Part shown: piece by piece, positions 48,300-59,671 of the stretch
Position numbering within the stretch: position 1 is the first letter of the stretch
How the letters are laid out: each line of letters opens with the position of its first letter
Source: Deltaproteobacteria bacterium
GTDB lineage: Bacteria; Myxococcota_A; Polyangia; Polyangiales; JADJMO01
Length of the DNA stretch: 62,669 bases
Assembly: GCA_025363655.1 (NCBI GenBank)
Contig: JANYDK010000005.1
Coordinates: 1 to 62,669 of the forward strand
Direction of reading: 5' to 3'
Notes under the pieces: generated by a model
Told to the model about the DNA's origin: nothing
Seen by the model: the letters and a program-made list of their open reading frames with translations, nothing else
Database searches by the model: none
Made by a program: the position numbers and the translations under genes

Positions 48300-49853
48300 A
48301 TGCCCCTCCCTGCCGACTTCGAGAAGAAGCTCTGGGCCGCCGCCGACCAGCTCTGGACGAATAGCGCCCTCCAGCCGTCGGAGTACTCGACGCCCGTCCT
48401 CGCGTTGATCTTTCTTCGCTATGCCGACGCCCGGTTCGCCCAGGCCGCGAAGGAGCTCGCCTCGAAGTCGCGTCGCCGCGGCGGGATCAGCAAGGACGAC
48501 TACCACGCGCTCGGTGTCCTCTACCTCCCCGAGACCGCCCGCTTCCGTCGGCTGCTCGAGCTGCCCGAGGGCTCGGACATCGGCAAGGCGCTGAACGACG
48601 CGATGAAGGCCATCGAGGCGGAGAACGACGAGCTGAAGGACGTGCTGCCGAAGACCTACGGCCGCTTCGACTCGACGATGTTGAAGGAGCTGCTCAAGCT
48701 CTTCGGCACCATCGCCGACGACGTCGAGGGCGACGTCTTCGGGCGCATCTACGAGTACTTTCTCGGCAACTTCGCCCCGGCCACGTTGCAGAAGGGCGGC
48801 GAGTTCTACACGCCCGTCTCCGTCGTCCGTCTGATCGTCGAGATCCTCGAGCCGTACCACGGCCGCATGCTTGATCCGGCGTGCGGCTCCGGCGGCATGT
48901 TCGTGCAGAGCGCCAACTTCATCGCCGCGCACGAGAAGAGGGCCCAGGACGAGATCTCCGTCTACGGCATCGAGAAGATCGCGCAGACCCTACGCCTCGC
49001 GCGCATGAACCTGGCTGTGCACGGCCTCTCCGGCGACATCAAGGAGGCGAACACCTACTACGACGCCGACGCGCACGGCGCCGAGTGGGGCAAGTTCGAC
49101 TTCGTTGCGGCCAACCCGCCGTTCAACCAGAACGCCGTCGACAAGGATCGCATCAAGGACGACACGAAGCGCTTCCCGTTCGGCATGCCGAGCACGGACA
49201 ACGCGAACTACCTCTGGATTCAGCTCTTCTACTCGGCGCTCGGCGACAAAGGACGCGCGGGGTTCGTCATGGCCAACAGTGCGAGCGACGCACGCGGCAG
49301 CGAGCTCGAGATCCGCAAGAAGCTGATCCAGTCCGGCGCCGTCGACGTCATCGTGACGCTCAGCCCGAACTTCTTCTACACGGTCACGCTGCCCGTCACG
49401 CTGTGGTTCTTCGATCGCGGTAAGGCGAAGACCGACCGCAAAGACAAGGTCCTCTTCGTCGACGCGAGGCATATTTTCCGTCAGGTCGATCGTGCGCATC
49501 GCGACTTCACGTCCGAGCAAGTCGAGTACCTCGCCAACATCGTCCGGCTCTATCGCGGGCAGTCCGCCGAGAACCGCCACGGCGGTGGGAAGATGCTCAA
49601 GGAGCACTTCGGCAAGGGCAAGTACGCCGATGCCGCGGGACTCTGCAAGCTCGCGTCGATGAAGGAAATCGCGGCGCAGGGGTGGAGCCTCAACCCCGGT
49701 CGCTACGTCGGCGTCGCCGAGCGTGAGGCGGAAGCGTTCGACTTCAAGGAGAAGCTTGAGACGCTGAACGAGGAGCTCGAGCGGCTCAACGGCGAGGCGC
49801 GCGAGCTTGAGACCAAGATCGCCGAGAACGTCAGCGCGATTCTGGAGGCGTGA
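48300..49853 (+). CDS. hsdM: Type I restriction-modification, DNA methyltransferase subunit
   Basis: 517 residues. N-terminal helical domain ([23 protein letters not shown]) then the N6-adenine methyltransferase domain with SAM motif DPACGSGGM (192-200) and catalytic NPPF (272-275), ending in a coiled coil (about 480-515) that contacts HsdS. Length and order are normal, so modification should be functional. No Shine-Dalgarno sequence is seen before ATG 48300. The hsdS ATG shares one base with its stop (TGATG). First intact gene of a five-gene chain. Confidence 0.95.
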
Positions 49854-51091
49854 TGCCGCGGCCCCATGAATGGCATCGCGTCGTCTTGTCGGAAGTCTGC
49901 GAATCGATCGTCGACTGCGTCAACAAGACTGCCCCTGTCGCCGATGAGCCAACGCCGTTCAAGATGATCCGCACGACCAACGTACGGGATGGCTGGGTCA
50001 ACCTAGACGAGGTGAAGTTCGTCACCGAGGAGGTGTTCGCCAAGTGGACGCGACGGCAACTGCCACGCCGCGGCGACGTAATTCTCACGCGCGAAGCACC
50101 TCTCGGCGAGGTGGGGATGCTTCGATCGGACGACACCGTGTTTCTTGGCCAGCGTCTCGTGTCGTATCGCGCGGACCCAGCGAAGCTCGATAATCGATTT
50201 CTTCTGTACGCGTTTCAAGAGCGTGACCTGCAAGCTCAGATAAAGTCGCTCGGCTCCGGAGCGACCGTCGAGCACATGCGGGTGCCCGACGCGGAGAAGC
50301 TCACGCTTAGGCTCCCGCCGCTGCCCGTTCAGCGCCACATCGCCGACATCCTCTCCGCCTACGACGACCTCATCGAGAACAACGCGAGACGCATCCAGAT
50401 TCTCGAGGAGATGGCACGCTCGTTGTACCGGGAGTGGTTCATCGAATTCAGGTTTCCGGAGAACCGTAAGGCGCGGTTCGTCGGTCATGGCGATGCGCGC
50501 ATCCCGAGCGGGTGGGCGGTAGAGACGCTTGGCAAAGCAGCATCGTTCATCAGCCGTGGCGTGTCGCCGAAGTACGCCGACGACGGGCCCGAAGTGGTCG
50601 TCAACCAGAAGTGCATCCGTGATCAGCGTCTATCGCTCGAACCAGCCCGACGCCACGCGACAAAGGTTCCAGCCGAGAAGTACGTTCGTGTCTTCGATGT
50701 CCTCATCAACTCCACCGGCGTCGGAACCCTAGGCCGCGTCGCTCAAGCTCTCGCAGACCTGAAAGGCTGCACCGTCGACACGCACGTGAGCATCGTACGG
50801 CCCGGCCCGGCCGTGACGCCACACTTCTGGGGCTACGCGCTGATGGCGAAGGAGCCGTACTTTGAGGCGCAGGGGGCCGGCGCCACTGGGCAGACCGAAC
50901 TGGCCCGAACTCGCATCGGCGAAACTCCGATCGTTCTCCCGCCCCGCGAGCTTCAAGCCAAGTTCGACAAACTTGTTGCCCGGTGGCGCGACTCGGCGAC
51001 GATCCTCCAAACCAAGCAGCGCGTGCTTCAGACGACTCGCGACCTGCTTCTGCCCCGCCTCATATCCGGCGACTTCGAGCTGCAACCATGA
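49853..51091 (+). CDS. hsdS: Type I restriction-modification, specificity subunit
   Basis: 412 residues with two target-recognition domains (about 1-150 and 205-360). They are separated by a central conserved helix (PLPVQRHIADILSAYDDLIENN...ARSLYREWF) and closed by a distal one (PPRELQAKFDKLV...LLLPRLISGDFEL). It therefore specifies a bipartite target. ATG 49853 is preferred over GTG 49850 because GGAGG sits four bases upstream. Base composition is a little more AT-rich than hsdM and hsdR, as is common for exchanged specificity genes. Its stop overlaps hsdR (ATGA). Confidence 0.93.
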   Translation: MPRPHEWHRVVLSEVCESIVDCVNKTAPVADEPTPFKMIRTTNVRDGWVNLDEVKFVTEEVFAKWTRRQLPRRGDVILTREAPLGEVGMLRSDDTVFLGQRLVSYRADPAKLDNRFLLYAFQERDLQAQIKSLGSGATVEHMRVPDAEKLTLRLPPLPVQRHIADILSAYDDLIENNARRIQILEEMARSLYREWFIEFRFPENRKARFVGHGDARIPSGWAVETLGKAASFISRGVSPKYADDGPEVVVNQKCIRDQRLSLEPARRHATKVPAEKYVRVFDVLINSTGVGTLGRVAQALADLKGCTVDTHVSIVRPGPAVTPHFWGYALMAKEPYFEAQGAGATGQTELARTRIGETPIVLPPRELQAKFDKLVARWRDSATILQTKQRVLQTTRDLLLPRLISGDFELQP

Positions 51092-54000
51092 GCCCCGGCA
51101 CACTCGAAGCCGACGTCGAGCAGGCCGCGCTCGACCTCCTCGCCTCGATGGGCTGGGCGTCGGAGAACGTCTACGACGAGGTCTTCGGCGAACACGGCAC
51201 GCTCGGCCGTGAGACTAAGGGCGACGTCGTCCTCGTGCGCCGGCTGCGGGCTGCCCTGGAACGATTGAACCGGAGCCTGCCCGCCGAGGCCATCGACACC
51301 GCCATCGAGGAGCTTGCTCGCGACCGATCGGCAATGGGCCTCGCCAGCGCCAACCGAGACGTCTACGGCCTGCTCAAGAACGGCGTGAAGGTGAAGGTCG
51401 CGGCGGCGGCCGACGATGACGACGAGCGTGACGTCACCGTTCATGTCATCGACTGGAGCAACCCGGCGAACAACGACTTCTTCGTCGCTCAGCAGCTTTG
51501 GGTGCAGGGCGAGATCTACCTCCGGCGCACCGACCTCGTCGGCTTCGTCAACGGCTTGCCGCTCGTCTTCATCGAGCTAAAGGCGATCAACCACAACGTC
51601 GAGACCGCGTACCGCGACAACTTCCGCGACTACCTGACCGCCATCCCGCAGATCTTCTGGTTCAACGCGCTCGCCATCGTCTCGAACGGCTTCGAGAGCC
51701 GCATCGGCAGCGTCACCGGCGCCTGGGAGCACTTCAAGGAGTGGAAACGCATCGAGCACGAGGACGAGCCGGCGCGCGTCAGCCTCGAGGTCATGCTGCG
51801 CGGCGTCTGCGAGAAGGGTCGTCTTCTCGATCTGATCGAGAACTTCACGCTCTTCTCCGAGGTGAAGTCCGGCGTCGCGAAGATCGTCGGGCAGAACCAC
51901 CAGTTCCTGGGCGTGAACAACGCCATCGCCGCGGTGAAGAAGTACCAGCTGGCATCGTTGCCGCCGGGCGTGGACGCGAAGAAGCTCGCCGAGCGTCGCC
52001 GCCTCGGCGTCTTCTGGCACACGCAGGGCTCGGGCAAGTCGTTCTCGATGGTCTTCTTCTCGCAAAAGATCCTGCGGAAGATCCAGGGCAATTGGACGTT
52101 CGTCATCCTCACCGATCGCGAAGACCTCGACGACCAGATCTACAAGACGTTCTCTGCGTGCGACGCCGTGAAGGACAAGAACGTCCAGGCCAAGAGCGCT
52201 GATCACCTCAAGCGGCTTCTCACCGAGGACCACCGCTATGTCTTCACGCTCATCCAGAAGTTCCGCACCGACGTGAAGGGCGCGACGTACCCGATGCTCT
52301 CGGACCGGAGTGACATCATCGTCGTCGCCGATGAGGCGCACCGCAGCCAATACGACACTTTCGCCCTGAACCTGCGCAATGCCCTGCCGAATGCTGCCTT
52401 CATCGGCTTCACCGGCACGCCGCTCATGGCCGGCGAAGAGAAGACCAAGGAGGTCTTCGGCAATTACGTCAGCGTCTACAACTTCCGTCAGGCCATCGAG
52501 GACAACGCCACCGTCCCGCTCTACTACGAGGCGCGCATCCCCGAGTTGCAGCTCTCGAACGAGGATCTGGCCGATGATCTCGCGGAGCTCGTCGACGAGG
52601 CCGACCTCGACGACGACCAGCAGAAGAAGCTCGAGCGCGAGTTCGGTCGGCAGTATCACCTGCTCACCCGCGAGGACCGCCTCGATACGATCGCCGCCGA
52701 CATCGTCACGCACTTCATCGGCTTGAACACATCCAAGGCCGACGGAGCCAAGCTCTTCGCCACCAAGGCGATGATGATCGCCATCGACAAAGTCACCGCC
52801 GTGCGGATGCACGACAAGGTGAAGCTCGCTTGGAAGGCGCGGTTGGACGAAGAGAAGGCGAAGCTCGGCAGCTTCCAGGATGCCGAGCGCGCTGCGGCCG
52901 TCGCACTGGTGAAGTTCATGGAGGAGACCGACATGGCCGTCGTCGTCTCCCAGGCGCAGAACGAGGTCGAGACGTTCAAGAAGAAGGGCCTCGACATCGC
53001 GCCGCACCGCGCCCGCGTGATCAAGGAGGACCTCGACACGAAGTTCAAGGACGAGAAGGACCGTCTGCGGATCGTCTTCGTCTGCGCGATGTGGATGACC
53101 GGCTTCGACGTGCCGAGCTGCGGTTCGGTCTACCTCGACAAGCCGATGAGGAACCACACCCTCATGCAGACCATCGCGCGCGCAAACCGCGTCTTCGAGG
53201 GCAAGGTCAACGGCCTCATCGTCGACTACGTCGGCGTCTTTCGGAACTTGCAGAAGGCGCTCGCCATCTATGGCACGGGTGCCGGCGGTGGCGTGCGTGA
53301 GGGCGACTCGCCGGTGCAGCCGAAGGAGGTCCAGCTCCAGCAGCTCGCCCACGACATCCAGGAGGCCAAGGCCTTCTGCAAAGCGAAGGGTGTGGATCTC
53401 GACGCGGCCCGGGCGGCGAACCCACTCCAGCGCCTCGCGGCCCTACGCGCCGGCGTGGACAAGCTCGTTCGTCCCTCAGAGACGAAGAAGAGGTACCTTG
53501 AGCTCGCCGGGGGCGTCGACCGCGTCTACCGGGCCATCGGCGTCGATGAGCGCAAGAACGCCCTCGCCAGCGACTGGGCCGTCATCACCGACCTCGCCCG
53601 CGGCATTCACGGCCTCGAGCAACCCGTCGACATCAGCAAGCTGATGGAGTCGGTCGAGCGCCTCCTCGACGAGTCCATCGACGCCGGCGGCTACGTCATT
53701 CGGGAGCCCAAGGGCACGCCGTACGGCGGACGCGTCCACCTCGGCAACATCGACTTCGACGCCCTCGCCCGTTACTTCAAGAAGGCGAAGCAGAAGGCCG
53801 TCTCCGCCGAGGTGGTCACCGTCGCCGTCCGACACCAGGTCGACACACTCGTCCGCCTCAACCCAACCCGCAAAAACCTCCGCGACCAGCTCGAGCTACT
53901 CATCGCCGACTACAACGACGGCGCCCACTCCACCGAGCGGTTCTTCAAGGAGCTCCTCGCCTTCATGAAGAAGGTCGGGGCCGAGCAGGGCCGAGCGCAG

Positions 54001-54324
54001 GGCGAAGCGCTCGACCAGGAGCAGCTCGCCTTCTATGACCTCGCCGCGGTGCCGGCGGTGACGCTATCGCCGGCGGAGCGGGAGCTGGTGAAGAAGATCG
54101 CGCGGGAGTTGCCGAAGAAGCTCGAGAAGAAGCTGGTGATCGACTGGCGGAAGACGCAGCGGTCGCGGGCGGCGGTGAAGGCGGCGATCAAGGATGGGCT
54201 CGACGCGTTGCCGGAGGCGTACGGGGAGGACGAGTACGGGAAGCTCGTCGAGGCGGTGTACGAGCACGTGTACGAGTCGTATTGGGGTGAGGGGAAGAGC
54301 AAGTACTTGGAGGGGGGGAAGTGA
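51088..54324 (+). CDS. hsdR: Type I restriction-modification, endonuclease/translocase subunit
   Basis: 1078 residues. Order: N-terminal PD-(D/E)xK nuclease (VFIELKAINHN, Glu-x-Lys), SF2 motor with Walker A HTQGSGKSFSM, DEAH-box ADEAHRSQYD and FTGTPL, a second motor lobe (IVFVCAMWMTGFDVPSCG, QTIARANRVF), and a C-terminal helical domain binding HsdM/S. All key residues are present. ATG 51088 overlaps the hsdS stop. The frame reads upstream to 50983 only as an hsdS shadow. Its own stop overlaps the next gene (GTGA). Confidence 0.95.
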   Translation: MSPGTLEADVEQAALDLLASMGWASENVYDEVFGEHGTLGRETKGDVVLVRRLRAALERLNRSLPAEAIDTAIEELARDRSAMGLASANRDVYGLLKNGVKVKVAAAADDDDERDVTVHVIDWSNPANNDFFVAQQLWVQGEIYLRRTDLVGFVNGLPLVFIELKAINHNVETAYRDNFRDYLTAIPQIFWFNALAIVSNGFESRIGSVTGAWEHFKEWKRIEHEDEPARVSLEVMLRGVCEKGRLLDLIENFTLFSEVKSGVAKIVGQNHQFLGVNNAIAAVKKYQLASLPPGVDAKKLAERRRLGVFWHTQGSGKSFSMVFFSQKILRKIQGNWTFVILTDREDLDDQIYKTFSACDAVKDKNVQAKSADHLKRLLTEDHRYVFTLIQKFRTDVKGATYPMLSDRSDIIVVADEAHRSQYDTFALNLRNALPNAAFIGFTGTPLMAGEEKTKEVFGNYVSVYNFRQAIEDNATVPLYYEARIPELQLSNEDLADDLAELVDEADLDDDQQKKLEREFGRQYHLLTREDRLDTIAADIVTHFIGLNTSKADGAKLFATKAMMIAIDKVTAVRMHDKVKLAWKARLDEEKAKLGSFQDAERAAAVALVKFMEETDMAVVVSQAQNEVETFKKKGLDIAPHRARVIKEDLDTKFKDEKDRLRIVFVCAMWMTGFDVPSCGSVYLDKPMRNHTLMQTIARANRVFEGKVNGLIVDYVGVFRNLQKALAIYGTGAGGGVREGDSPVQPKEVQLQQLAHDIQEAKAFCKAKGVDLDAARAANPLQRLAALRAGVDKLVRPSETKKRYLELAGGVDRVYRAIGVDERKNALASDWAVITDLARGIHGLEQPVDISKLMESVERLLDESIDAGGYVIREPKGTPYGGRVHLGNIDFDALARYFKKAKQKAVSAEVVTVAVRHQVDTLVRLNPTRKNLRDQLELLIADYNDGAHSTERFFKELLAFMKKVGAEQGRAQGEALDQEQLAFYDLAAVPAVTLSPAERELVKKIARELPKKLEKKLVIDWRKTQRSRAAVKAAIKDGLDALPEAYGEDEYGKLVEAVYEHVYESYWGEGKSKYLEGGK

Positions 54325-55115
54325 CGACGGCGAACCTCGATGCGGAAGCGCGTCGAATCCGGGTTGAACTCGTGGGCTGCCCTCGTCAGTGCGAAGGCGT
54401 GGTCAGACGAAACCCCGGTAGTGGGCATGTCCCTCGGCTCGTCCATCTCGAGCGGCGCGGCATGCGATCCGACGACGGCGTCGTGATCGTTGGCATGAAT
54501 CCCGGCGCCGCGGGTGACGACGAGTCAAACATCGTCAGAGATAGCGCTAAGGAGCATGACGAGGCCGCCGCTGAAGAGATCAACGGCCGGATTGCCACGG
54601 CTCTCTACGCGCATTTCGAGAAGAACATTCTTCCCGAGAACCGCTACTACAAGCTCGCGCGCGAGGCGGTGAGCGCCCTAGGGTTCTCCGGCCCCATATT
54701 CTGGACAGAAGCAGTGAAGTGCTCGTCGACGTCGCGCGGAAGCTTGAGCGTCACTGCGACCACGGCAACCTTCGCGACGTGCGGATCCATATGGCTTCGA
54801 CGAGAGTTGGAATTCGTTCCGACAGCTTGGCCGCTGATCACCGTTGGACGCGACGCCTTCGTCGCGGCGTGCCTGCTGGCAACAGACCGGCGTATCCTCG
54901 GCCTCCCACATGTAACGGCCGCGAGAAGCCCGGCATTCTGGCGCGTGTTCCAGAGGCTAGAGCGCGACGGCGATCTGCGATTACGACGGCCCGCCAATAA
55001 GGCGCTGGTGGCGTGGCTGACGGGCGCGCAGCGCCACTTCATGCTGTTCGCCGCGGCACCCAAAGAGTCGCGCAACGATCGACCCCGAGCTCAGCGACCA
55101 AACGCTTGTAGGTGA
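54321..55115 (+). CDS. Uracil-DNA glycosylase-superfamily protein with likely Fe-S cluster
   Basis: 264 residues. Motif A-like VVIVGMNPGAAGD (about 54-66), central FWTEAVKC, and PLITVGRDAF strand follow the UDG fold. Four Cys at 20, 24, 134 and 154 are spaced like the [4Fe-4S] ligands of family 4/5 UDGs (C-xxx-C here instead of C-xx-C). The second catalytic motif (usually HPS) is not obvious near PHVTAARSPA, so activity may differ. GTG 54321 overlaps the hsdR stop (GTGA), so it is translationally coupled to restriction. Role in recognising unusual bases is inference. Confidence 0.72.
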   Translation: MTTANLDAEARRIRVELVGCPRQCEGVVRRNPGSGHVPRLVHLERRGMRSDDGVVIVGMNPGAAGDDESNIVRDSAKEHDEAAAEEINGRIATALYAHFEKNILPENRYYKLAREAVSALGFSGPIFWTEAVKCSSTSRGSLSVTATTATFATCGSIWLRRELEFVPTAWPLITVGRDAFVAACLLATDRRILGLPHVTAARSPAFWRVFQRLERDGDLRLRRPANKALVAWLTGAQRHFMLFAAAPKESRNDRPRAQRPNACR

Positions 55116-55120
55116 GGACC

Positions 55121-56828
55121 ATGGACATCAAGCCCACCGATTCCACAGTGAAAAGCCTCCTCGAATCGGGCTTCTACAAGATTCCGCGTTTCCAACGACC
55201 CTACTCTTGGGATCGTGAAAACATCGAGGAGTTCTGGAACGACGCCATTCAATCCGATGCCAAGGACTACTTCATCGGGTCCTTCGTCGTCTACAAGGGG
55301 CCCGAAGCGTACGGTCCGCTGTACCTCGTCGATGGGCAGCAGCGCCTGAACCACAATCACTCTTCTGCTCGCGGCCGTCAGGGATGCGCTCGATGGCGCG
55401 GGCTTCAAGCCGCAGGCACTCGGCGTCCAGCAGCTCATCGAGCGAAGGGATATCGAGGCGGAGACCCAGTTCGTCCTCCAGACCGAAACATCGTACCCAT
55501 TTCTTCAGGAGCACATTCAAAAGTTCGGCACTCCCGAGCTCAAGGGCGGCGACGGCGACGAAGAGAGCGCGTTGCGCGAAGCCTACGGATTTCTTCGCCG
55601 TCAGCTCCGAGCCGGGCTTGAGGCGGTCGATGCCAACACCAGCGTGTCGAAGGTCAAGAAGGACAGGGAAAAGCTGGCCTACCTTGTGCGGGTACGTGAT
55701 CAGGTCCTTCGGCTCCAGCTCATTCAGATCCAGCTTACCAAGGAAGACGAAGCCTATCTGATCTTCGAGACCCTAAACACACGCGGCAAGGACCTCACGG
55801 TCTCCGACCTCGTCAAGAATCACCTCGCGCGGCTGATGAAGCCGAAGAACAAGGGAGTTGACGTTCTTCGCGAGAAATGGAGCGAAATGCTGGACCGACT
55901 CGAGTCGTCGAAGGCGGACCTCGACTTGAACAGGTTCCTCCACCACTCGTGGCTGTCGCGTCGCAACTACATGGGCGAGAAGCAGCTCTTCGTTGCTGTC
56001 AAAAAGGTCGTAGACAAGAGCAACGCGTCGGACTTCTTGGACGACCTTCTGAGCGATGCCGCCGCATATCGAACGGTGTTCGAGCCTGAGTACCACAAGT
56101 GGACAAAGCAAGAGCGTGAAGTGGTTGAGTCGCTTCGCGCTCTCCAAGTGTTCCGCGTGATGCAGCCGGCTCCGATGCTCCTCGCTGTCGTCCGCGCCCA
56201 CTTCGCCAAGACAATTTCGATGAAACAAGCGGCTCAGGTTCTTCGCGTCATGGAGCACTTTCACCTTCAATTCACTGCACTTACTGCGCAGCGCACCGGT
56301 GGTGGAACGGCGAAGATGTACGCATTGGGCGGCCGATCGCTTTGCGAGGCGACCGACAAGAACAAGGCGGCTGCCGTGCTGAAAGAGTTCGTGGCAAAGC
56401 TTCGAGAGCGAGTGCCATTGGAGACCGAGTTCGTCCCCGGGTTCGTGCAACTCCGCTACTCGGACGAGAACACAAAGCAGCGAAATCTCGTCAGGTACGT
56501 CCTCCGTCGGCTCGACGAGTACTTTCGAAAGGGTGCTCCGGTCGATTACGAGAAGTTCTCGATCGAGCACATCGCGCCGCAGAACCCAACCTCGGGCGCG
56601 CCGACCAGCCGCTTCGCGGAGATCGGCAATCTGATCCTGGTCCCCGAAGAGCTGAATGGCGAGCTGAAGAACGAGCCATTCCCGAAGAAAAAGGCCAAGC
56701 TGGCGACCGCCCAGATTCCCTTCGATGCCGTACTTAGCAAGGCCACCACTGCCTGGGGCGACGCAGAGATTGAAGCTCGGTCGTCGGCGCTCGCCAAGGT
56801 CGCGCATAGCAAGATTTTCGTCGTGTAA
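55121..56828 (+). pseudogene. GmrSD-type DUF262/DUF1524 nuclease, one-base frameshift
   Basis: The first part (55121-55348) is a DUF262 N-terminus: IPRFQRPYSWDRENIEEFWND, FIGSFVV and the nucleotide-site motif VDGQQRL. Immediately afterwards one extra A (55349 or 55350, in GCCTGAACC) shifts the frame. The shifted frame gives TTITLLLAAVRDAL and continues without a stop to 56828, including a DUF1524 nuclease end (IEHIAPQNP, IGNLILVPEELNGELKNEPF). With the base removed it would encode about 568 intact residues. GmrSD-type enzymes cut modified phage DNA. Either a recent inactivation, an assembly error, or a recoded site. It starts five bases after the UDG-like stop. Confidence 0.8.
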
Positions 56829-57611: not shown

Positions 57612-58331
57612 TCACGCGCGATTAGCTACTGGGTGGGCTACCATGAGTGGAGTCGGGACGTCCCGACTTTGCCTTCGCGGGTGACGGGCAGAGGGAGCCC
57701 AAACCGTCTTCGTCGACGTTCGCAGCTTACGTAGGCCCCCGCGCAGCGCCTTGATGGCGTTCTTCACCATCGGGTCGTCCCCGGCGTTGTCGGCTGCCAG
57801 TCGTTCCGGCAGACGACCTATCATCCGCTCAATCCGGCCCACCATCTTCGCGGCGTCCTGGATGGCCTTGGCGATAGTTGCGGCGCCCGACAGCTTCTTG
57901 CGAAATTCGCTCTTCAGCGCACGCACCGAGAGCCCCTCCTCGACGATGCGATTCAAGAGGACGTCTCGCTCGCTGCGCTTCTTCCGTTTCGCTACCAGTT
58001 CGAGGTGCGACCAGGTTATGCCGATGCCATTCGGCGCCGCCCTTCCCTTGAGGCGCCGGAAGGCGGCACTGTCCCAGTGCTTCGCGATGGTTGCTGCGCG
58101 GAAGAGCGTCGACTTGTCTCGACCGAGGGCGTTGGCGAGCCGCAGCATGCCGCGCTTTCCGTATTTCTCGGGGTCGTCCTGCACGTCCTTTGCCAGCTTC
58201 CCGATCGCGTAGCGCTTCTCGAGCTCCGTCTTCGACGCGTCGCGCTCATACTCCTTAGCCTTCTCGATCGCGGACTCGAGCGCCGGCGTGAGCTGCGGTT
58301 TGCGACGTTTGGGGGGGGGCTTGTCGACCAT
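57612..58331 (-). CDS. DUF1016_N-like DNA-associated protein
   Basis: 239 residues. The N-terminus is Lys/Pro-rich. The central part (about 40-165) resembles the DUF1016 (YhcG) N-terminal domain: YAIGKLAKDVQ...YGKRGMLRLANALG and ITWSHLELVAKRKK...VEEGLSVRALKSEF, the TWSH...WSVREL pattern. The nuclease domain of full YhcG proteins is missing, so it is more likely a regulator or partition-type DNA-binding protein of the element. A perfect 18-bp palindrome lies within its last codons. Confidence 0.6.
   Translation of the reverse strand: MVDKPPPKRRKPQLTPALESAIEKAKEYERDASKTELEKRYAIGKLAKDVQDDPEKYGKRGMLRLANALGRDKSTLFRAATIAKHWDSAAFRRLKGRAAPNGIGITWSHLELVAKRKKRSERDVLLNRIVEEGLSVRALKSEFRKKLSGAATIAKAIQDAAKMVGRIERMIGRLPERLAADNAGDDPMVKNAIKALRGGLRKLRTSTKTVWAPSARHPRRQSRDVPTPLMVAHPVANRA
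57651..57668. promoter_or_regulatory. 18-bp palindrome, copy 2 (perfect)
   Basis: AGTCGGGACGTCCCGACT is a perfect 18-bp inverted repeat. It differs from copy 1 by one central base. It lies between the small membrane gene and the DUF1016_N-like gene, within the 3' codons of the latter, so selection on the protein alone is unlikely to explain it. Confidence 0.6.
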
Positions 58332-58427: not shown

Positions 58428-59495
58428 TCACCGGTGCAAGAACTCGTGCCCCGTCGACTCCGTCTCGAAGAGACGAATGTACCGTTCCGTCACCGCGATC
58501 CCCGAATGCCCGAGCAGCACCGAGACCCGCTTCAGCGGCATCCCTCGCGCGTGCAGCGCGCTCGCCCACGCCCGTCGGAGGTCGTGGATGGAGAAGCGCG
58601 GCAGCCCGAGGTGCTCCCGGACCTTGCGGATCGCCTCCCACGTCGCCTTGTCGTCCAGGCGCACGCTGCCCTTCGTCTTCACGAACTCGAGCGCCGCCTC
58701 GCGCGTCGCCTTCGAGACCGGCACCCGGCGACAGCGGTAGTTCTTCGGCTGCCAGCCCTCCTTCGGCGTGACGACGAGGACGCCCTGCTCGTTGCCGACG
58801 ACCTCGACGTTGACGGCGTCGAGGTGACGCGCCTCGTCGATACGGATGCCACTGCCGGCGACCAACGCGATGAGCGACGCATGACCAGGGGCGAGGAGCG
58901 CCTTGGCGACGCGGACGACCTCGTCCACCTGGTCCGGCGACAGGGTTATCGCGCTGGGGTTCGGCTGCGGCTCCCGCAGCTTGAGCTCCTCGAAGTCTTC
59001 CCCGCGGAAGGGGTTCGATGCGATCAACCCCTCTCGCTTGCCGAAGGCGAACATCCGACGCACGGGCATCAAGTCCCGGTTCACCGTCCGGGCCTTCACC
59101 TTCGCGCTTCGCGTGCGGACATACTCGGCCATCAGTTTGAACGTCACTTCGTTGGTCGTGACGACACCCTTGGTCTCGCACCAGTCGACGAACATGGTGA
59201 TTCGGCTGTGGTAGGAAGCCGCGGTCTTCTTGGTGACGCGGGGCGGGCAGAGGTGCTCGGAGTAGCGAGCGGCGAGCTCGGTCACGAGGGGTTCCGGAGC
59301 CGCTTCAGGTGCTCGCGCAGTTCGCTCGCGCTCCGCGGCCAGCTCGAAGAGCTTGCGCTGGGCGACGGCGGCGTCGGCGGTGCCGAGGGCGACTTCACGG
59401 CCTTCGAGGAGGCCCGACCAGAACTTCGACTTCCCCCTCTGTCGGAAGAGGTGCGGGGCGCCGCGGATGTACTTCTTTCGTTTCCTTCCTGCCAT
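58428..59495 (-). CDS. Tyrosine recombinase (integrase)
   Basis: 355 residues. A SAM-like core-binding domain (about 70-160) precedes the catalytic domain. Catalytic set: Arg218 (GSGIRIDEARH), Lys245 region, His304 and Arg307 (SIHDLRRAWAS), His330 (LLGHSG) and nucleophile Tyr339 (ERYIR). All are intact, so it should be active. It would move the element between tRNA-Ser and the right edge. Its first 214 bases overlap the upstream HTH gene in another frame. A terminator follows. Confidence 0.93.
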   Translation of the reverse strand: MAGRKRKKYIRGAPHLFRQRGKSKFWSGLLEGREVALGTADAAVAQRKLFELAAERERTARAPEAAPEPLVTELAARYSEHLCPPRVTKKTAASYHSRITMFVDWCETKGVVTTNEVTFKLMAEYVRTRSAKVKARTVNRDLMPVRRMFAFGKREGLIASNPFRGEDFEELKLREPQPNPSAITLSPDQVDEVVRVAKALLAPGHASLIALVAGSGIRIDEARHLDAVNVEVVGNEQGVLVVTPKEGWQPKNYRCRRVPVSKATREAALEFVKTKGSVRLDDKATWEAIRKVREHLGLPRFSIHDLRRAWASALHARGMPLKRVSVLLGHSGIAVTERYIRLFETESTGHEFLHR

Positions 59496-59671
59496 GACGA
59501 GTCCTGCGAGTCGTCCGTTCGCGACGTCTCGAGAAAGTGCGTCACGCTCGCGGCGTCGACGCGGATGGAACGACCGATCCGGTACGCGACGAGGGCGCGA
59601 CGGCAGATCAAGCGGCGGACGGTGCGGGGGCAGACGCCGAGGGCGGCGGCCACCTGCTGCACGTTGAGCAC
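59282..59671 (-). CDS. Excisionase-type helix-turn-helix protein
   Basis: 129 residues. The first about 50 are a MerR/excisionase-like winged HTH (MLNVQQVAAALGVCPRTVRRL...VAYRIGRSIRVDAASVTHFLE), the usual recombination directionality factor beside an integrase. The remaining 75 residues are low-complexity Ser/Pro/Arg and run through the integrase 5' end in a different frame for 214 bases. That tail is probably a read-on after loss of a nearer stop. The start is GTG 59671. Confidence 0.75.
   Translation of the reverse strand: MLNVQQVAAALGVCPRTVRRLICRRALVAYRIGRSIRVDAASVTHFLETSRTDDSQDSSWQEGNERSTSAAPRTSSDRGGSRSSGRASSKAVKSPSAPPTPPSPSASSSSWPRSASELREHLKRLRNPS

What the first reader, a model, noticed from the sequence alone, without database searches (positions are those of the whole stretch)
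55340..55360. Single-base insertion after DGQQRL in the DUF262 nuclease
Removing one A from GCCTGAACC restores a continuous frame of about 568 codons, with DUF262 before and DUF1524 after the site. Everything else in the gene is intact, so the lesion is recent, an assembly error, or a recoding or phase-variable site. There is no homopolymer, which argues against simple slippage.
Basis: seen in the sequence. Interest (0 to 1): 0.6.

Follow-up and report, generated by a model that had tools for sequence, protein, structure and literature searches.

The report
Frameshifted GmrSD-type defence nuclease gene
An otherwise intact bacterial anti-phage nuclease gene carries one extra base inside its most conserved motif, which most likely means that the gene was recently switched off by mutation or that the draft assembly has a one-base error; it is ordinary either way.

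Summary
At window 55346-55350 (CTGAA) the reading frame of a DUF262-DUF1524 (GmrSD-type) gene shifts by one base. It falls exactly between ...VDGQQRL (76 aa, from ATG 55121) and TTITLLL... (492 aa, to 56825). Read through, this is one 568-aa protein with both GmrSD domains.

Sixteen of 16 fetched relatives read straight through the site, including eight close ones (31-46% identical). The break is inside the DUF262 domain, in the family signature (I/V)(I/V)DGQQRLTT, so it is not a GmrS/GmrD gene split. I found no slippery sequence, repeat, unusual RNA structure or downstream restart, which leaves nothing to support recoding or phase variation. The rest of the gene is as conserved as in intact relatives, so the lesion is recent or an assembly error.

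The draft genome carries a few other single-base frameshifts (about 3 per Mb by my estimate). Two other family members, on complete plasmids, are broken by single-base indels at other places. Sporadic one-base breaks are therefore unremarkable here.

Best explanation: a recent inactivating mutation in a dispensable defence gene (about 60%). The main rival is a consensus error (about 35%). Only reads or a second isolate can decide.

The parts
55121..55348 (+). N-terminal part of the DUF262-DUF1524 gene (76 aa, ends ...VDGQQRL), preceded by an AGGTGAGG ribosome-binding-like sequence
   Evidence: Pfam GmrSD_N positions 3-68, E=2.8e-18
55346..55350 (+). site of the one-base frame change (CTGAA), inside the conserved DGQQRL|TT motif; in-frame TGA 55347-55349 in the downstream frame
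   Evidence: coding-model shift placed at 55358
55349..55621 (+). out-of-frame tail actually encoded after the lesion (about 90 codons to the stop)
55350..56828 (+). remainder of the gene in the shifted frame (492 aa): rest of DUF262 plus intact DUF1524 HNH domain (IEHIAPQ...GNLILVPEELN...NEPFPKK)
   Evidence: GmrSD_C E=2.1e-17 and the second half of GmrSD_N; motifs aligned
55572..56828 (+). only ORF a ribosome could start in the downstream frame (first start codon TTG; 418 aa, lacks the DGQQR part)
48300..49853 (+). hsdM, type I methyltransferase (same operon, intact)
   Evidence: N6_Mtase E=1e-80, HsdM_N E=7.6e-23
49850..51091 (+). hsdS specificity subunit (intact)
   Evidence: Methylase_S E=1.9e-16; PADLOC Specificity_I
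50983..54324 (+). hsdR type I restriction subunit (intact; the true start is probably downstream of the listed GTG)
   Evidence: SWI2_SNF2 E=1e-75, HSDR_N E=9.3e-43
54321..55115 (+). ORF of 264 aa between hsdR and the broken gene; possibly uracil-DNA-glycosylase-like
   Evidence: Pfam UDG only E=0.015, below cut-off

Best explanation
This is a GmrSD-type (DUF262-DUF1524) restriction nuclease gene, last in a tight operon behind a complete type I restriction-modification system. It carries a single-base frameshift in its DGQQRLTT signature. Most likely it is a genuine, recent loss-of-function mutation. The ribosome makes a 166-aa product (76 native residues plus about 90 out-of-frame) with no nuclease domain. 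The downstream part has no start codon for more than 200 bases, so no working enzyme is made. Shown: the lesion, the otherwise intact gene, and the absence of a second copy. Inferred: loss of function, and that the lesion is in the organism rather than in the assembly.
For: Lesion and open flanking frames. Domains on both sides. PADLOC defence labels (Orf5 E=1.4e-133, HEC-06 E=2.1e-92) for the read-through protein. Sixteen of 16 fetched relatives are uninterrupted at the site. Only one copy in the own genome. Window protein keeps 94 of 103 columns invariant in its close relatives (0.913; intact relatives 0.904-0.989), so constraint acted until recently. Absence of any second lesion bounds neutral divergence since loss to about 1.4-2.7% under stated indel rates. 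Independent one-base breaks at other positions in family members on complete plasmids (Haloprofundus, Klebsiella). Literature: DUF262-DUF1524 loss-of-function is tolerated without cost in plasmid-free Pseudomonas SBW25 (PFLU4242, PMC8544851).
Against: The assembly is a 150-contig draft of 9.0 Mb, and no reads or second isolate could be examined. Other single-base shifts occur in it, including in the conserved PrkA gene 248 nt from a contig end, which is what sporadic consensus errors would give. The complete absence of other decay is also what an error predicts.
Confidence: 0.6

Rival explanations
1. Consensus error: the organism's gene is intact and the extra base was introduced by sequencing or assembly (or by collapsing strain variants).
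For: Draft of 150 contigs; gene otherwise fully conserved; a few other single-base shifts elsewhere, one 248 nt from a contig end. Precedent: apparent GmrS/GmrD splits, including that of the founding E. coli CT596 member, were attributed to annotation or sequencing error (PMC4619093).
Against: The rate of such events is low (4 clear ones in 1.95 Mb; about 3 per Mb after correcting for 66% sensitivity). The site is not a homopolymer and not near a contig end (the contig ends at 62669).
Confidence: 0.35
2. Programmed +1 ribosomal frameshifting produces the full-length enzyme from the two frames.
For: Only that the downstream frame has stayed open and conserved.
Against: No relative has a frame change here (16 of 16 continuous). 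The P-site CUG would re-pair poorly with UGA after a +1 slip. There is no stop codon in the zero frame at the site to cause pausing. Downstream RNA is not unusually structured (z=-1.11). Broken family members elsewhere are broken at different places.
Confidence: 0.02
3. Phase-variable on/off switch at this site.
For: Defence genes are sometimes phase-variable (general knowledge).
Against: No homopolymer or short tandem repeat at the site; the motif region is not repetitive in relatives.
Confidence: 0.02
4. Selected loss of function: the mutation was favoured because the nuclease conflicts with an incoming plasmid or element, as for PFLU4242 in Pseudomonas fluorescens SBW25. This is a sub-case of the best explanation.
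For: PFLU4242 has the same DUF262-DUF1524 architecture, and its loss removes the fitness cost of pQBR plasmids (PMC8544851, PMC11637435).
Against: No specific conflicting element was identified here; homology to PFLU4242 itself was not tested, only shared architecture. A tyrosine integrase lies nearby (58428-59495), but this is only suggestive.
Confidence: 0.07

Closest known systems
GmrSD type IV restriction enzymes (PF03235 + PF07510), single-chain form
   Same: Both domains in the same order; DGQQRLTT signature; (I/L/V)(E/D)H(I/L/V)xPQ and NxxFxxKK-type motifs in the C-terminal domain
   Different: The gene here is interrupted by one base; substrate unknown
PADLOC 'Orf5' / HEC-06 candidate defence proteins
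   Same: Best model matches: Orf5 PDLC02699 E=1.4e-133, residues 19-541; HEC-06 PDLC04157 E=2.1e-92
   Different: Only the read-through protein was scanned against these models; neither encoded fragment could cover them whole
PFLU4242 of Pseudomonas fluorescens SBW25
   Same: DUF262 N-terminal plus DUF1524 C-terminal architecture; loss-of-function alleles known and tolerated (PMC8544851)
   Different: Sequence relationship not tested here; PFLU4242 alleles arose in experiments with pQBR plasmids
Broken DUF262 genes on plasmids of Haloprofundus halobius (NZ_CP083668) and Klebsiella pneumoniae (NZ_CP141856)
   Same: Family members annotated as two ORFs because of single-base deletions
   Different: Breaks at other positions: about 20 nt before the DGQQR codons in Haloprofundus; two sites in A-runs in Klebsiella

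Membership tests
GmrSD type IV restriction enzyme (single chain) | DUF262/GmrSD_N followed by DUF1524/GmrSD_C | tested here: met
   Read-through protein: GmrSD_N E=9.2e-37 (12-235), GmrSD_C E=2.6e-17 (447-560), both above curated cut-offs
GmrSD type IV restriction enzyme (single chain) | (I/V)(I/V)DGQQRLTT(I/L/V)xLL motif | tested here: inconclusive
   Present as LVDGQQRL|TTITLLL only across the frame break; neither encoded product carries it whole
GmrSD type IV restriction enzyme (single chain) | HNH-type motifs (E/D)H..PQ, GNL, NxxFxxKK in the C-terminal domain | tested here: met
   IEHIAPQ, IGNLILVPEELN, NEPFPKKK in the downstream frame
GmrSD type IV restriction enzyme (single chain) | Continuous open reading frame | tested here: not met
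   One-base frame change at 55346-55350
GmrSD type IV restriction enzyme (single chain) | Cleavage of modified (e.g. glucosylated hydroxymethylcytosine) DNA | not testable with these tools
   Biochemical
Two-gene GmrS/GmrD form | Gene boundary between the DUF262 and DUF1524 domains, each with its own start | tested here: not met
   Break at residue 76/77 inside DUF262 (domain 12-235); first start of the second frame is at 55572
Programmed +1 frameshift gene | Shift site conserved in relatives | tested here: not met
   16 of 16 relatives continuous
Programmed +1 frameshift gene | Slippery codon pair and stimulatory structure | tested here: not met
   CUG-AAC, no zero-frame stop at the site; z-score -1.11
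Phase-variable gene | Homopolymer or short tandem repeat at the lesion | tested here: not met
   Longest run at the site is AA

The most novel reading that the evidence does not exclude
The extra base is real and the population keeps both alleles, or the ribosome bypasses the base at low frequency, so that a costly type IV nuclease is held in a mostly-off state.
Probability: 0.03. Interest if true: 0.5.

Novelty: new member of a known kind. Interest (0 to 1): 0.12.

Why it matters
Little turns on it. If real, it is one more example that defence nucleases of the DUF262-DUF1524 type are gained and lost quickly, with the neighbouring type I system kept. If it is an assembly error, it warns that such 'split GmrSD' genes should not be read as two-component systems, as already happened with the founding member of the family (PMC4619093).

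Tried and rejected
A first one-strand codon-frame scan gave roughly 500 candidate shifts, mostly shadows of opposite-strand genes; it was discarded and replaced by a two-strand model. Of that model's 16 events in 1.95 Mb, most are gene ends, fusions or low-complexity tails. Four are clear single-base shifts: this one, PrkA on L055, a sigma-54/FHA regulator on L066, and a DUF3223 protein on L032. Two are uncertain.

No close copy of this gene was found in 56 nearer relatives (best E=3.2e-37) or in 329 genomes of the phylum at E<=1e-60, nor in viral contigs. A phage search gave only distant matches.

No direct repeat of the tRNA-Ser 3' end was found that would mark an island attachment site. A two-gene GmrS/GmrD split, recoding and phase variation were considered and rejected.

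Full report
Observation. The sequence at 55343-55352 is CGCCTGAACC, once in the window. From ATG 55121, which has a good ribosome-binding-like AGGTGAGG upstream, the frame encodes MDIKPTDST...LYLVDGQQRL up to 55348. It then continues out of frame (NHNHSSARGR...) to a stop at 55619-55621. The continuation of the protein, TTITLLLAAVRDAL..., lies one base over, from 55350 to 56825. In that second frame there is a TGA at 55347-55349, so the switch point is fixed to within a few bases. A coding model trained on this genome puts one frameshift at 55358 with about 35 nats of support.

What the gene is. The read-through protein matches Pfam GmrSD_N (E=9.2e-37, residues 12-235) and GmrSD_C (E=2.6e-17, 447-560). 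Each encoded piece matches only its share, with GmrSD_N cut between profile positions 68 and 69. PADLOC's best models are Orf5 (1.4e-133) and HEC-06 (2.1e-92). By sequence, the only PDB relatives are called DUF262 domain-containing proteins (9jfl E=7.4e-12). The break lies within (I/V)(I/V)DGQQRLTT(I/L/V)xLL, the best-conserved motif of the GmrS domain, proposed to bind and hydrolyse NTP (PMC4619093). The predicted nuclease motifs of the second domain (IEHIAPQ, GNLILV, NEPFPKK) are intact but in the other frame.

Surroundings. The gene is last in a tightly packed run: hsdM 48300-49853, hsdS 49850-51091, hsdR ending 54324, an ORF at 54321-55115 with only a sub-threshold uracil-DNA-glycosylase match, and then this gene 5 bases later. 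A tyrosine integrase lies at 58428-59495 on the minus strand. G+C dips to about 0.62 at 54-58 kb against about 0.66 for the window. This looks like horizontally acquired defence cargo, and the closest relatives found are in Acidobacteriaceae, Pseudomonas, Phaeobacter and Vibrio rather than in the window's own phylum. There is no second copy in the genome.

Relatives. Sixteen relatives were extracted, eight of them 31-46% identical over the length (L020-L022, L043-L047). All read through the site in one frame with DGQQ(R/Q)L-(T/A)T or similar. So neither a two-gene split nor a conserved shift site exists here. At columns invariant among the other close relatives, the window protein keeps 94 of 103 (0.913), within the range of the intact ones (0.904-0.989). 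The rest of the gene has not drifted. Given no second lesion in 1.7 kb, neutral divergence since the break is at most about 1.4% (if indels are 10% as common as substitutions) to 2.7% (if 3%). So the lesion is recent or it is not in the organism.

Recoding or switching. There is no run longer than AA, no tandem repeat, and no stop codon in the zero frame at the site. The P-site CUG would pair poorly after a +1 slip (inference). RNA downstream folds no better than shuffles (z=-1.11). The first start codon in the second frame is TTG 55572, which leaves out the DGQQR region. I see nothing that would let the cell make the full protein.

Real mutation or error. In 1.95 Mb of this genome a conservative scan gave 16 candidate shifts. 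By inspection and Pfam, four are clear single-base shifts: this gene, a PrkA kinase 248 nt from a contig end, a sigma-54/FHA regulator and a DUF3223 protein. Sensitivity for implanted single-base duplications in genes of 900 nt or more was 79/120, so the true rate is about 3 per Mb. That is compatible with either a few natural pseudogenes or sporadic consensus errors.

Natural precedents exist in the family. A Haloprofundus plasmid copy has lost one base about 20 nt before its DGQQR codons, with no homopolymer there, while the 76%-identical Halapricum copy is intact. A Klebsiella plasmid copy has lost single bases at two A-runs, while 92%-identical E. coli copies are intact. These records could contain errors too, but they are complete plasmids. 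Published work shows that loss of a DUF262-DUF1524 gene (PFLU4242) carries no detectable cost in plasmid-free cells and is favoured when certain plasmids are present (PMC8544851, PMC11637435, PMC10062694). It also notes that apparent GmrS/GmrD splits have been sequencing errors before (PMC4619093). On balance I give 60% to a genuine recent inactivation, 35% to an assembly error, and under 5% to recoding or phase variation together.

Verdict. The finding itself is ordinary.

Noticed in passing
54321-55115 (+): 264-aa ORF between hsdR and the DUF262 gene, possibly a uracil-DNA-glycosylase-like protein (Pfam UDG E=0.015, below cut-off). No relative in 282 genomes of the phylum at E<=1e-10.
   Followed up: partly
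58428-59495 (-) and 59282-59671 (-): Tyrosine integrase with an overlapping HTH/excisionase-like ORF next to the defence operon; no tRNA-Ser-derived att repeat found.
   Followed up: partly
57612-58331 (-): ORF with a sub-threshold match to the DUF1016 N-terminal domain (E=0.00013).
   Followed up: no
L032 about 1125 (-): DUF3223 protein of the same genome with a single-base shift.
   Followed up: partly
L055 about 14871 (+): PrkA kinase gene with a one-base shift 248 nt from a contig end, a likely consensus error or pseudogene.
   Followed up: partly
L060 about 7207 (+): Apparent fusion of a CzcB-like adaptor to the middle of a CzcA-like pump (by eye), suggesting an internal deletion or misjoin.
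   Followed up: no
L131 223-2054: Haloprofundus halobius plasmid DUF262 gene split by a one-base loss just before its DGQQR codons; annotated as two genes.
   Followed up: yes
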